This document shows, in pieces, positions 3,098-36,400 of a DNA stretch of 64,000 nt; position 1 is the stretch's first letter, and each line of letters opens with the position of its first letter. The stretch spans positions 1 to 64,000 of the forward strand of contig JAVZCJ010000008.1 of NCBI GenBank assembly GCA_038874475.1, given 5' to 3'. Position numbers and translations under genes: made by a program. Source of the DNA: Nitrososphaerota archaeon. GTDB lineage: Archaea > Thermoproteota > Nitrososphaeria_A > Caldarchaeales > JAVZCJ01. The notes below the pieces were generated by a model. That model was not told the origin of the DNA, did no database searches, and saw only the letters and a program-made list of their open reading frames with translations.

Positions 3098-3760
3098 ATG
3101 CCTTTTATTCCATTCACAAAAAATTTTGCAGATAATAGTGTAGAGGCAGGGTTTCAATTTACTTTCTTTTGCGATATTTGTCAAGATGGCTATAAAACAA
3201 GTTTTATCGAATCAAAATCTTATAAGAAAGCAGGTTTACTAAGAGGTTTGGGTAGAGCTGCTTCTATTGCTTCATCTATGGCAGGACGTAGTATAGGATA
3301 TCACATCGAAAGTGGTACAGATGTTATTGCTGAAAGATTTAGAGGGATGTCTCCAGAATGGCATAAGGAACATGAAGAAGCTTTCAAATTAGCTCAAAAT
3401 GAAGCAATGGGGCATTTCCATAAATGTCCAAAATGTGGAAGATGGGTATGCGATATTTGTTGGAATGATGAAGTTGGGCTTTGTAAGGAGGATGCACCAA
3501 GAGCTGCAACTGAAATTGCTGCTGCAAGAGCAACAGTAATGAAAGAGCAAATATGGGAAAAGGCTAAAGAAACAAAAATTTTTAAAGGAGAAATTAAACC
3601 AACACAAACAATATGTCCAGTATGTGGAAAACCTGCTGGAACAGGAAAATTTTGCATAAACTGTGGTGCTCCACTTACATTAACAAAATGTTCTAAATGT
3701 GGAGCAGAAATTACTCCTGGTGCTAGATTTTGTCCAGAATGTGGAAATAAGCTTTTCTAA
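3098..3760 (+). CDS. Double zinc-ribbon protein with N-terminal conserved domain
   Basis: The 220-residue product starts with a conserved region containing one Cys pair (CDICQDGY, residues 25-32), then a small-residue-rich helix (GRAASIASSMAGRS). CPKCGRWVCDIC follows near residues 109-120, and two C-terminal ribbons close it (CPVCGKPAG...CINCG and CSKCGAEITPGARFCPECG). This architecture is widespread in bacteria and archaea and is often annotated only as a zinc-ribbon domain protein. The middle amphipathic segment could associate with membrane, but no clear transmembrane helix is seen. Its function is unknown. Confidence 0.7.
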   Translation: MPFIPFTKNFADNSVEAGFQFTFFCDICQDGYKTSFIESKSYKKAGLLRGLGRAASIASSMAGRSIGYHIESGTDVIAERFRGMSPEWHKEHEEAFKLAQNEAMGHFHKCPKCGRWVCDICWNDEVGLCKEDAPRAATEIAAARATVMKEQIWEKAKETKIFKGEIKPTQTICPVCGKPAGTGKFCINCGAPLTLTKCSKCGAEITPGARFCPECGNKLF

Positions 3761-3951
3761 AAAATACCAAAAAACGAGAAATAACCCTCCTCTCAAAAAG
3801 GTATTTAAAAGTAGATCAAGAACGGAATAAAAAGTACATTTTGTTTTTTGATTCAAGAATAATAGGACATATAGTTCTCAAATACATATAATGGATTTGT
3901 TAAGATTTAATATAAAAGCACTACCAGCTCTATTAAATAGAACGTTCTCCT

Positions 3952-33544: not shown

Positions 33545-34465
33545 TCATGCAGGCATAATTGGAGGATTATCATCTGTGGATAATTTTTCTTCTTTTTCAA
33601 GAAATTCTTTAAGTTCAGGAGGAAGAGAAAATAGTGCATAATGCATTTTTTCATTATAAAAGCGAAGATTACCATTTATTCTATTTTTTATTAAAATACT
33701 TAATTCTTTAATATCAATTTTTAATGGATCATAAACATTTGAGCCGATAACAAAGCCCCAACAAGAATTGTATGATGGGATCCATGCATAATATGCCCTT
33801 GCTATTTTAAAAACTTTCCTTATCGTATTAAAAATTATTGAAAAAACATTTTTACTATAAAATATTGAACTAGCTTGGGTAACAATCAAACCATCTTCTT
33901 TTAAGCGTGATTTAGCTAATTCATAAAATTCTTTTGTATAAAGAAGTTGAGATGGCCCTGCTTCAATAGGATCTGTTACATCTACTATTATCACATCATA
34001 AGTTTTCTCTTTACTCTTCTTAAGAAATTCTCTTCCATCATTAAATTCTAGAATTACTCTTTCATCAAAAAATGAATTTTTATGTATTTCTGGAATGTAT
34101 TTCTTACATAATTCTACAACTTCTTTATCCAAATCAACCATTGTAACTTTTTTTATATTATGTTTTAATACTTCTCTTATTGTTGTACCTTCTCCTCCAC
34201 CTATAACTAAAACTTCTTTTGGATTTGGGTGAGTTATTAATGCTGGATGTACCAAAGATTCGTGATAAATATATTCATCAATAATAGAAGATTGAATTTT
34301 TCCATCTAGTATTAAACAAATTCCAAAAGGGTCAATTTCAACAATTTCAATTTTTTGATATTTTGTATATCCACTATATATAACATTTTTTATCTTATGC
34401 ATCACAGCTAATTCAGGTGTTTGCCATTCTATAAACCATATCCAACTCTCTTTATTTTCTCCCAT
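33545..34465 (-). CDS. speE: Polyamine aminopropyltransferase (spermidine synthase)
   Basis: The 306-residue enzyme transfers aminopropyl from decarboxylated AdoMet to a diamine or agmatine. It shows YQKIEIVEIDPFGICLILDG, YHESLVHPALITHPNPKEVLVIGGGEG, VDLDKEVVELCKKY and the active-site block DVIIVDVTDPIEAGPSQLLY. It lies 26 bases after the AdoMet decarboxylase gene on the same strand, so the two enzymes of the pathway are co-transcribed. Archaeal homologues often use agmatine, which cannot be told here. Confidence 0.9.
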   Translation of the reverse strand: MGENKESWIWFIEWQTPELAVMHKIKNVIYSGYTKYQKIEIVEIDPFGICLILDGKIQSSIIDEYIYHESLVHPALITHPNPKEVLVIGGGEGTTIREVLKHNIKKVTMVDLDKEVVELCKKYIPEIHKNSFFDERVILEFNDGREFLKKSKEKTYDVIIVDVTDPIEAGPSQLLYTKEFYELAKSRLKEDGLIVTQASSIFYSKNVFSIIFNTIRKVFKIARAYYAWIPSYNSCWGFVIGSNVYDPLKIDIKELSILIKNRINGNLRFYNEKMHYALFSLPPELKEFLEKEEKLSTDDNPPIMPA

Positions 34466-34491: not shown

Positions 34492-35814
34492 TTATTCACT
34501 CTCATCTAAATTTAAACATACAATTCTTTTATCTTCTACTTTTACTATATTATGCTTTTTAAGTAGTCTTAATATTCTTAAACCTTCATTATAAGGAAAT
34601 TCAAAATCATTAAAAATGCTTGATACAGAAATTTTCTTATTCTTTAAAAGGAAATTAATTATTTTATAATATTCTGTATTGAATTGATACATAGATTTTT
34701 GTTTCATGGAAATATTTATTTCAAAAAGCGATAATGGAAAAATTTTATTAATAGAAGTAATAATTTGCATTCTAATAAAATTGTCATATGTTAGCTTTAT
34801 TCTTATACCATAACATTTTTTCTTTCCTAATTTCTTAATAACTATTCCATTAGTTTTTATGAATATTTCATTTAATGTTTTTTCTATATTTTTTATAAAA
34901 TCTTTTGAATTTTCATTTAAAGGACTTTTAATCAATAAAACTATATCATGAGAATCATTCTTTTCATTTTCAAAATTATAAATTCCTTTTACATTATCAA
35001 ATGCTTTCAATAATAAAGGTGATAAGAAAATAGCTTTAATTTGTTCTTCTTCATTTTTTAGCCATGATGGAAATTCTAATATTCTATTATTTTCAGAATC
35101 CTTTGGTGCGCCAAGTATATAAAGCAATTTACATAAATTTTTATCATTAACATATAGTTCAAATATTTTATTTCCTTTCTTATTTATTTTTGGTTTTATT
35201 ATCGCATTTACTTTTAATAAATTTATTTTTTTCTTTAAAATTTCCAGTATGTATTTATTTTTATGATAAATATGGAAACATTTTAAACCGTTATGTAAAT
35301 AACCATTTGCAATAATAAAACCAATTAAATTTACTAAAATTAAAAATTTCTCATTTGTATTAATTAATGGAAGCAAATTTCTTTTTTTCATCCATTCATT
35401 TAATTCTTTATCAATATCATTTTCACTTAAAATAATTCTTGATTGAAAAACATCATCTTTTAAATTCCTTGGTAAAAATGTGATTTCAAATTTTTTTGGT
35501 TTAAACATTTTAATAAATTCATATATAGAATTTATAGGATATCCTGTACAACTATAAATATCAAGTAAAAGAGAATAATTTTCTGGAAAAGTATTAACAA
35601 TTATATGAGAATCTGCAATGAGAGCAACAATTGTAATCCCTTTTCCTCCATCTTCAAATTTTTTATAAAAAAGTTTAATTAATTTCATTCTTCCTTGAAT
35701 AATAGAAGAAATCAAAGTTGAAAGAATGAAATTTTCATCTTCTAAAAGTTTTGGATCACAACCTGTTAGAGTTGCATAAATTGATACGTGTGTATTAAAG
35801 CCTATTTTTTTCAT
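34492..35814 (-). CDS. speD: S-adenosylmethionine decarboxylase fused to LAGLIDADG-like and winged-helix regions
   Basis: Residues 1-115 are a small AdoMet decarboxylase: LTGCDPKLLEDENFI, IADSHIIVNTFPE with Ser69-His70 as the self-cleavage site that forms pyruvoyl, and YSCTG with Cys89. Residues about 155-370 resemble LAGLIDADG nucleases: LIGFIIANGYLHNGLKCFHI (163-182) followed by YVNDKNLCKLLYILGAPKDS. The usual catalytic acid is Asn170, so cutting activity is doubtful. Residues 378-432 look like a winged helix. The family enzyme is normally only about 120-130 residues. The fusion is in one frame and directly upstream of speE. Confidence 0.75.
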   Translation of the reverse strand: MKKIGFNTHVSIYATLTGCDPKLLEDENFILSTLISSIIQGRMKLIKLFYKKFEDGGKGITIVALIADSHIIVNTFPENYSLLLDIYSCTGYPINSIYEFIKMFKPKKFEITFLPRNLKDDVFQSRIILSENDIDKELNEWMKKRNLLPLINTNEKFLILVNLIGFIIANGYLHNGLKCFHIYHKNKYILEILKKKINLLKVNAIIKPKINKKGNKIFELYVNDKNLCKLLYILGAPKDSENNRILEFPSWLKNEEEQIKAIFLSPLLLKAFDNVKGIYNFENEKNDSHDIVLLIKSPLNENSKDFIKNIEKTLNEIFIKTNGIVIKKLGKKKCYGIRIKLTYDNFIRMQIITSINKIFPLSLFEINISMKQKSMYQFNTEYYKIINFLLKNKKISVSSIFNDFEFPYNEGLRILRLLKKHNIVKVEDKRIVCLNLDESE

Positions 35815-36001
35815 GGAAAATCGCCTCTAGTATATTAATAAAATTTATGTAAAAAAAGTAAAATTTTTGAAAAAAAATAATTAATAAAAAATATTTATAG
35901 CTAGAAAATAATTTTTTTATTAAGTTTGAAAAAAATCTTTTAAATATTTCAGGGGCAAAATCGTGAAAAAACACGATTAAATGTATCCCCAATTTTATCA
36001 T
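35795..36001 (-). CDS. Possible small upstream reading frame overlapping the AdoMet decarboxylase start
   Basis: An ATG at 36001 is preceded by AGGTGG five bases upstream and opens a 68-codon frame beginning MIKLGIHLIVFFHDFAPEIF. It ends at 35795, 20 bases inside the AdoMet decarboxylase gene. The composition is extremely Phe/Ile/Lys-rich, as expected from chance translation of AT-rich DNA, so the ribosome site is the only strong sign. If real, it would be a hydrophobic small protein or a regulatory uORF. Confidence 0.3.
   Translation of the reverse strand: MIKLGIHLIVFFHDFAPEIFKRFFSNLIKKLFSSYKYFLLIIFFQKFYFFYINFINILEAIFHEKNRL
35952..35990. other. Nested hairpin in the 650-bp gap upstream of AdoMet decarboxylase
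   Basis: AATCGTG (35959-35965) pairs with CACGATT (35972-35978) across an A6 loop. GGGG (35952-35955) and CCCC (35987-35990) can close an outer helix. It stands out in an otherwise A/T-only gap and would lie in the 5' leader of the speD-speE transcript. The remaining gap to 36190 shows only AT-rich sequence with one GGAGG on the minus strand near 36050. Confidence 0.4.
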
Positions 36002-36192
36002 TTTAACCACCTTAATTATATTTTGACATTTTTCCCTGATTCTCAACCTCCTTCTATCATTTTTGTAGCATATTTTTCTTAAAAAATCAAAAATTTAAGT
36101 TTTTAATTAAAAATTTGCTATTTTTACTTATCTAAATTCCTAATAATTAAAAAAATAAAATATAATTTAAAAAAATTAATAAAATGATTAAT

Positions 36193-36400
36193 TCATTCAG
36201 AAAATTCTTCTAAAACTTTTCCTTTTGTCTCAATTCCTAAAAATATAACACTTAAAGAAGCTATTATATGTACTAAAGTAAATATAATAAATGAAAATAT
36301 ATTTTCCAATAGAATATGTATTAGTTAATGGAGAAATAGTAATAGAGAAAAAGAGAATATACTGGAGCAATACCAAAAATTCTAAAACTATTGGAAAAAA
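36193..36400 (-). pseudogene. C-terminal relict of an MFS sugar-type transporter
   Basis: The minus strand carries a final transmembrane helix and tail, ENIFSFIIFTLVHIIASLSV then FLGIETKGKVLEEFSE with a stop at 36193. The ETKGKxLEE ending is the hallmark of sugar-porter MFS proteins. Upstream pieces (to about 36400) remain hydrophobic but are broken by stops and frame changes, and the first ten or so helices are missing. The gene is dead. The gap 35815-36466 therefore contains a transporter relict and the hairpin listed separately. Confidence 0.6.

What the first reader, a model, noticed from the sequence alone, without database searches (positions are those of the whole stretch)
34492..35814. 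AdoMet decarboxylase fused to a LAGLIDADG-like region with a lost catalytic acid and to a winged helix
Seen: residues 1-115 form a full small AdoMet decarboxylase with the Ser-His cleavage site. Residues about 155-370 look like a homing-endonuclease fold (LIGFIIANGYL) with Asn in place of the acid, and the end looks like a winged helix. Known: SpeD/SpeH enzymes are about 120-130 residues. LAGLIDADG proteins can be domesticated as DNA-binding regulators. Inferred: the fused region may sense or control polyamine gene expression, or the gene was invaded at its 3' end and the nuclease was retired. Co-transcription with speE supports a real spermidine role.
Basis: partly seen in the sequence, partly recalled or inferred. 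Interest (0 to 1): 0.7.

Follow-up and report, generated by a model that had tools for sequence, protein, structure and literature searches.

The report
Polyamine gene fused to dead endonuclease
In one genus of hot-spring archaea the only chromosomal gene for the polyamine enzyme SpeD is fused to a disarmed DNA-cutting domain of the kind that sits inside the RtcB intein (a selfish, self-splicing protein insert), and the enzyme half has also lost a key residue, so the protein probably binds DNA rather than cutting it.

Summary
The ORF is real, on the minus strand (34495-35814, 440 codons). It is kept in frame, at 90% identity and upstream of speE, in a second MAG of the same genus, and is absent from the 42 other genomes held of its class (probably Caldarchaeales). 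Residues 12-116 are a divergent SpeD. Residues about 118-375 are the LAGLIDADG endonuclease module of the RtcB intein: NF038162 E=1.4e-15, and nearly every relative found elsewhere is an RtcB intein. The predicted fold matches an intein endonuclease (Z 18.4). Both catalytic acids are gone (N170, A271) and there are no splicing domains. A weakly supported winged helix ends the chain. The genus shows no conventional chromosomal SpeD, has the arginine decarboxylase PdaD that six sampled class members lack, and retains spermidine synthase. The tail is under purifying selection (omega 0.24). Best reading: an intein-derived endonuclease captured by speD, disarmed and retained as a DNA-binding module, WhiA-like. 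The regulatory role is inferred, not shown.

The parts
34495..35814 (-). whole fused ORF, 440 aa (stop codon 34492-34494), ATG start with a Shine-Dalgarno-like GAGGCGAT
   Evidence: same frame in G001
35467..35781 (-). SpeD / AdoMet decarboxylase domain, residues 12-116; divergent
   Evidence: PF02675 E=2.2e-17; TIGR03330 below cut-off
35605..35613 (-). cleavage-site residues D68-S69-H70 (E-S-H in every other SpeD compared)
35593..35595 (-). codon 74, Asn in place of the invariant His (position of T. maritima His68, numbering from memory)
34690..35463 (-). linker plus two-repeat LAGLIDADG domain, residues about 118-375, homologous to the endonuclease module of the RtcB intein
   Evidence: NF038162 positions 202-478, E=1.4e-15; alignments; model and fold match
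35305..35307 (-). codon 170, Asn for the first catalytic Asp
   Evidence: D in 24 of 25 aligned RtcB inteins
35002..35004 (-). codon 271, Ala for the second catalytic Glu
   Evidence: E in 22 of 25 aligned RtcB inteins
34495..34689 (-). C-terminal winged-helix-like region, residues 376-440 (weak)
   Evidence: PF09397 FtsK_gamma E=7e-4, below cut-off; low-pLDDT helices and strands
33545..34465 (-). speE, spermidine synthase, 26 nt downstream of the stop codon, same strand
   Evidence: NF002010 297 bits, cut-off 260; linkage also in G001
35960..35977 (.). inverted repeat ATCGTG-N6-CACGAT about 150 bp upstream; candidate operator only
   Evidence: one site in each of G000 and G001, both upstream of this gene; backwards control 0

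Best explanation
Shown by sequence: the gene is a divergent SpeD joined in frame to the LAGLIDADG homing-endonuclease module otherwise seen inside the RtcB intein, without the intein's splicing domains, with both catalytic acids replaced and with a winged-helix-like C-terminus. Inferred: the endonuclease reached speD as an intein-derived homing element, lost nuclease activity, and was kept as a DNA-binding module. The most likely present role is a WhiA-like DNA-binding protein, probably acting on its own speD-speE operon. The SpeD half then either still works as a slow, atypical AdoMet decarboxylase or has become a sensor for AdoMet or polyamines. Steps shown: homology, loss of catalytic residues, conservation, operon-like arrangement. 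Steps inferred: DNA binding, autoregulation, ligand sensing.
For: Residues 125-400 match the RtcB-intein model, E=1.4e-15. In 398 Thermoproteota genomes, 27 of 28 hits outside the genus are reading frames of RtcB-intein size, about 790-1000 aa. Of 40 named relatives found among 84,980 species, 39 are RtcB inteins by their flanking motifs and length, and one is a LonB intein. Co-linearity includes the pre-LAGLIDADG linker ELKKRGLLPL. AF2 core pLDDT above 90. Z 18.4 to the TliVMA intein, 15.6 to I-DmoI, 14.2 to WhiA in an RNA polymerase complex. Both acids lost. No Hint or intein-splicing domain in the Pfam scan. Tail omega 0.24, bootstrap 0.14-0.41; residues 117-260 0.11, against SpeD 0.09. Domain pI about 9.6, net charge +16. 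One inverted repeat per genome, upstream of this gene. WhiA is a HEN-plus-HTH transcription factor that lacks nuclease activity (PMC11701221).
Against: No DNA-binding or expression data. Only two genomes of one genus carry it, so conservation is measured over a short span (dS about 0.2-0.3), and for residues 261-375 and 376-440 the omega interval reaches 1. The winged helix is weakly supported. The RNA fold of the upstream region is no better than shuffles. A single inverted repeat is a thin basis for an operator. The positive charge is shared by all the intein endonucleases and so does not point to a new role.
Confidence: 0.45

Rival explanations
1. Retired passenger: the SpeD half remains the working AdoMet decarboxylase despite Asn74, and the endonuclease tail is a remnant of a homing element, tolerated at the 3' end or kept only for folding or stability.
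For: The gene sits in the normal speD position before speE. SpeE is intact and conserved (omega 0.10) and needs decarboxylated AdoMet. Two deoxyhypusine-synthase homologues are present, which implies a need for a polyamine. No other chromosomal SpeD was found. Loss of both nuclease acids is what decay would give. The C-terminal half of the tail evolves faster (omega 0.3-0.46).
Against: Residues 117-260 are as constrained as SpeD (omega 0.11). No stop or indel in either genome over 324 extra codons. The SpeD half itself lacks an otherwise invariant residue.
Confidence: 0.33
2. WHO-like homing allele: an intein-derived endonuclease travelled with a recoded, cleavage-resistant speD copy and replaced the resident speD by gene conversion, as yeast WHO elements do at FBA1; it has since lost activity. 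This concerns origin and is compatible with either present-day role.
For: WHO elements resemble inteins, home without protein splicing and replace the 3' end of FBA1 (PMC7282813). Here the SpeD domain has a very long branch (5.5-9.5 changes per column) and the genus shows no conventional SpeD of its own. The one RtcB seen in the genus has an empty intein site.
Against: No active copy or intermediate is known. The nearest active relatives are inteins, not speD-linked elements. The donor SpeD is unidentified; its placement with either paralogue group is not resolved (AU p=0.12 for the AdoMetDC-like group).
Confidence: 0.3
3. Pseudoenzyme only: the whole protein has lost decarboxylase activity and acts purely as a sensor or scaffold; the aminopropyl donor comes from another route or SpeE has another use.
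For: His to Asn at the processing position in both genomes. [quoted passage not shown] that human H243 corresponds to this position is from my own knowledge. The genus has PdaD arginine decarboxylase, absent from six sampled relatives.
Against: SpeE is conserved and needs decarboxylated AdoMet, and no other enzyme known to make it was found. The cleavage Ser and the Cys of the YSC motif are retained. Asn in place of His has not been tested.
Confidence: 0.2
4. Assembly or frame artefact joining two genes.
For: Only MAG assemblies carry it.
Against: Two assemblies, different upstream flanks, the same 440-codon frame at 90% identity with no indel.
Confidence: 0.01

Closest known systems
RtcB intein homing-endonuclease module (NF038162, RtcB_rel_intein)
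   Same: Co-linear linker, LAGLIDADG repeats and spacing; about 19-32% identity; same predicted fold
   Different: Not inside RtcB, no Hint splicing blocks, both catalytic acids lost, different C-terminal helix region
Class 1b AdoMet decarboxylase SpeD (PF02675, TIGR03330)
   Same: Domain match, cleavage Ser, speE linkage
   Different: Glu to Asp before Ser, invariant His to Asn, below the equivalog cut-off, 324 extra residues
WhiA (DUF199), LAGLIDADG plus HTH transcription factor
   Same: Nuclease-dead LAGLIDADG fold followed by a helix-turn-helix; Z 14.2 to WhiA in 8dy7
   Different: No WhiA family match by sequence in Pfam; fused to an enzyme domain; archaeal; nearest relatives are RtcB inteins
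WHO elements and HO endonuclease of yeasts
   Same: Intein-like endonuclease attached to a metabolic host gene; domestication precedent (PMC7282813)
   Different: Eukaryotic zinc-finger fusion proteins with an active nuclease; here inactive and archaeal
SpeD-SpeD fusions (Li et al. 2023)
   Same: SpeD as part of a fusion upstream of speE (PMC10407285)
   Different: Partner there is a second SpeD; that paper reports no SpeD fusion in extant archaea

Membership tests
Class 1b AdoMet decarboxylase (SpeD) | PF02675 domain above gathering score | tested here: met
   63.8 bits, cut-off 25
Class 1b AdoMet decarboxylase (SpeD) | TIGR03330 equivalog cut-off | tested here: not met
   59.2 and 63 bits, cut-off 75.65
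Class 1b AdoMet decarboxylase (SpeD) | Cleavage-site Ser that becomes pyruvoyl | tested here: met
   Ser69 aligned with T. maritima and Aquifex Ser
Class 1b AdoMet decarboxylase (SpeD) | Invariant His five residues after the cleavage Ser | tested here: not met
   Asn74 in both genomes; His in 28 distinct other SpeDs and 80 viral ones
Class 1b AdoMet decarboxylase (SpeD) | Self-processing and AdoMet decarboxylation | not testable with these tools
   needs the purified protein
LAGLIDADG homing endonuclease | Two-repeat LAGLIDADG fold | tested here: met
   AF2 model; Z 18.4 to 7qss, 15.6 to I-DmoI
LAGLIDADG homing endonuclease | Acidic residue at the end of each LAGLIDADG helix | tested here: not met
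   N170 and A271
RtcB intein | Homologous endonuclease module | tested here: met
RtcB intein | Hint splicing domain around the endonuclease, inserted in RtcB | tested here: not met
   No Hint or intein Pfam match; residues 1-116 are SpeD; alignment starts after the Hint N part
WhiA (DUF199) | Sequence membership of the WhiA family | tested here: not met
   No WhiA model reported at E<=1
WhiA (DUF199) | LAGLIDADG fold plus HTH, nuclease dead | tested here: inconclusive
   Fold and lost acids met; HTH only weak
WhiA (DUF199) | Sequence-specific DNA binding | not testable with these tools
   needs EMSA or ChIP

The most novel reading that the evidence does not exclude
An archaeal one-component regulator made from a metabolic enzyme and a disarmed intein endonuclease: a SpeD-derived AdoMet or polyamine sensor that controls its own speD-speE operon through a captured LAGLIDADG DNA-binding domain, in a lineage where this protein also replaced the normal enzyme through WHO-like homing.
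Probability: 0.2. Interest if true: 0.8.

Novelty: new variant of a known kind. Interest (0 to 1): 0.55.

Why it matters
Intein endonucleases are usually treated as parasites of their host gene. Here one is found outside its intein, disarmed, joined to an unrelated metabolic gene and under purifying selection. It would be a second LAGLIDADG-to-DNA-binding capture besides WhiA, and an archaeal case. It also makes a direct question testable: can SpeD form its pyruvoyl group with Asn at the processing His, in a lineage that seems to have no other SpeD?

Tried and rejected
(1) SpeD-remnant idea: the conserved upstream mini-ORF (MIKLGIHLIVFF...) looked like an old SpeD start, but a profile of 28 SpeDs did not find it above noise; dropped. 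(2) Structured RNA or riboswitch upstream of speD: Rfam gave only sub-threshold chance matches and the fold z-score is 0.15. (3) Repeat family upstream: no other strong copy in the genome. (4) Aligning SpeD rows and endonuclease rows together with the full length misaligned them; the parts were aligned apart. (5) The full-length AF2 model folded SpeD poorly, as it had no SpeD rows; not used. (6) Scans with the whole protein in genome contigs and viral contigs found no further fusion. The tail had no match in phages, and plasmids gave only the SpeD domain. (7) A hit to the winged helix in G215 (L070) has in-frame stops and lies among unrelated genes; treated as chance. (8) SpeD tree: whether the head is closer to the ArgDC-like or the AdoMetDC-like paralogues is unresolved because of the long branch. 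(9) Tree of endonuclease modules: the fusion's branch is too long to say which intein lineage it came from.

Full report
OBSERVATION. The ORF lies on the minus strand, 34495-35814, 440 codons, stop at 34492-34494. Its ATG follows GAGGCGAT in the window's genome (G000) and AGGTGAT in a relative (G001), both plausible archaeal Shine-Dalgarno sequences. speE begins 26 nt after the stop codon on the same strand and also carries GGTGTT before its ATG. Pfam finds AdoMet_dc in residues 13-116 at E=2.2e-17 and weak LAGLIDADG_3 and FtsK_gamma matches. NCBIfam finds the RtcB_rel_intein model over residues 125-400 at E=1.4e-15, model positions 202-478 of 961.

REALITY AND SPREAD. A second MAG of the same genus (G001) has the full 440-codon frame at 90% identity with no indel, again upstream of speE. 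All 44 genomes held for the class were searched: only these two carry the fusion, the other SpeDs being separate short genes. Named records that coincide with same-order genomes include Caldarchaeum, Calditenuis and Terraquivivens, so the order is probably Caldarchaeales; that name is inferred. An assembly artefact is therefore very unlikely.

WHAT THE TAIL IS. Among 398 Thermoproteota genomes, 27 of the 28 matches to residues 116-440 outside the genus lie in frames of about 790-1000 aa, the size of intein-bearing RtcB; the 28th is a short match with stops, judged chance. A scan of one genome per species (84,980 species) returned 40 relatives: 39 are RtcB with an intein, judged by flanking RtcB motifs and length, and one sits in what looks like a LonB intein of a Woesearchaeote. 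That scan starts from two short peptide patterns, so it can miss relatives. The alignment is co-linear from a linker (ELKKRGLLPL) through both LAGLIDADG helices. AlphaFold2 on 26 sequences gives a confident LAGLIDADG core (144 residues at pLDDT 90 or more) and a poorly defined C-terminus. Structural comparison gives Z 18.4 to the TliVMA intein (191 residues, 2.5 A), 15.6 to I-DmoI, and 14.2 to WhiA in an RNA polymerase complex. The Asp of the first motif is Asn170, where 24 of 25 aligned inteins have Asp; the Glu of the second is Ala271, where 22 of 25 have Glu. One Caldivirga intein (L100) has also lost both, so such decay happens inside inteins too. No Hint splicing domain is reported by Pfam. 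In G001, RtcB is uninterrupted at the intein site GVGYDIN/CGVRL; RtcB is not found in the G000 assembly.

WHAT THE HEAD IS. The SpeD domain retains the cleavage Ser69 and Cys89, but Glu before the Ser is Asp68 and the His five residues after it is Asn74. The other SpeDs compared (30 rows, 28 distinct: mostly this order, two from elsewhere in the phylum, one from the virus-like contig) and all 80 viral SpeD loci have E and H there; both selections used patterns that also allowed D and N. The 80 viral loci are the best-scoring of a larger set. The equivalog cut-off for AdoMet decarboxylase is missed. In the human enzyme, the H243A mutant is cleaved but does not turn Ser68 into pyruvoyl (PMC5377238); equating human H243 with this position rests on my own knowledge. 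Relatives in the class usually carry two SpeD paralogues, one next to speE and one not. This genus shows neither on a chromosome-like contig: the only other SpeD in G000 is on an 11.5-kb virus-like contig and G001 has none. It does have PdaD-type arginine decarboxylase, which six sampled class members lack. The paralogue from which the head derives is unresolved; the tree leans to the ArgDC-like group, but the branch is extreme and the alternative is not rejected (AU p=0.12).

SELECTION. Between G000 and G001, omega is 0.09 for SpeD, 0.24 for the tail (bootstrap 0.14-0.41), 0.11 for residues 117-260, 0.46 for 261-375 and 0.30 for 376-440; the last two intervals reach 1. The tail as a whole is constrained. 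SpeE has omega 0.10.

MECHANISM. I think an intein-derived homing endonuclease reached speD, lost cutting activity and was kept for DNA binding. WhiA is a precedent for a nuclease-dead LAGLIDADG protein with an HTH acting as a transcription factor (PMC11701221). Yeast WHO elements are a precedent for intein-like endonucleases that home into a metabolic gene and replace part of it (PMC7282813). The target is unknown. One conserved inverted repeat, ATCGTG-N6-CACGA, occurs once in each genome, about 150 bp upstream of this gene, with its 6-nt spacer reading TTTTTT in one and AAAAAA in the other; it is a candidate operator and nothing more. The main rival is that the tail is a remnant on a still-working enzyme; conserved speE and two deoxyhypusine-synthase homologues argue that the genus needs a polyamine.

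NOVELTY. I found no report of this fusion. Li et al. 2023 describe SpeD-SpeD fusions and say no SpeD fusion was detected in extant archaea (PMC10407285). The paper library is open-access only, so absence there is weak evidence. Each part is a known kind; the combination, and the loss of key residues in both halves, is new to me.

LIMITS. Two MAGs, one genus, no experimental data. MAG completeness is 97-98%, so a missing conventional SpeD remains possible. Contig C22 may be a contaminant or a virus of this host.

Noticed in passing
G000:C22 = L089, 1-11525: Virus-like contig binned with the window's genome carries a conventional SpeD (ESHISIHTFP, 673-1101 minus) beside portal-like, SbcC/Mre11-like and QueE-like ORFs (names by eye).
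   Followed up: partly
window 35930-36110 and L039 5860-6100: Intergenic block well conserved between the two species, with an inverted repeat whose 6-nt spacer is inverted (T6 against A6); a mini-ORF there is unexplained.
   Followed up: partly
window about 36193-36300, minus strand: Remnant of the C-terminus of an MFS-like transporter gene that is intact upstream of the fusion in G001 (L039 4398-5717; name by eye).
   Followed up: partly
L129 (Woesearchaeota, about 3501-3845): A LonB-like protein's intein carries the same linker plus endonuclease module as RtcB inteins, suggesting module exchange between inteins.
   Followed up: partly
L042 1243-2727; L043 85-2109: Other inteins in the window's genome: in a LigD-phosphoesterase-like protein and a 2-oxoacid:ferredoxin oxidoreductase beta subunit (names by eye).
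   Followed up: no
G000:C3:131847-132377; G001:C34:4069-4599: PdaD-type arginine decarboxylase present in this genus, absent from six sampled class members, most of which carry two SpeD paralogues.
   Followed up: partly
G000 assembly; G001:C3:91223-92482 (L080): RtcB not found in G000 and lies at a contig end in G001; probably an assembly gap.
   Followed up: partly
L100 (Caldivirga sp. RSNS23): RtcB intein whose endonuclease has GNG and Lys in place of the two acids: a decayed intein endonuclease still inside RtcB.
   Followed up: no
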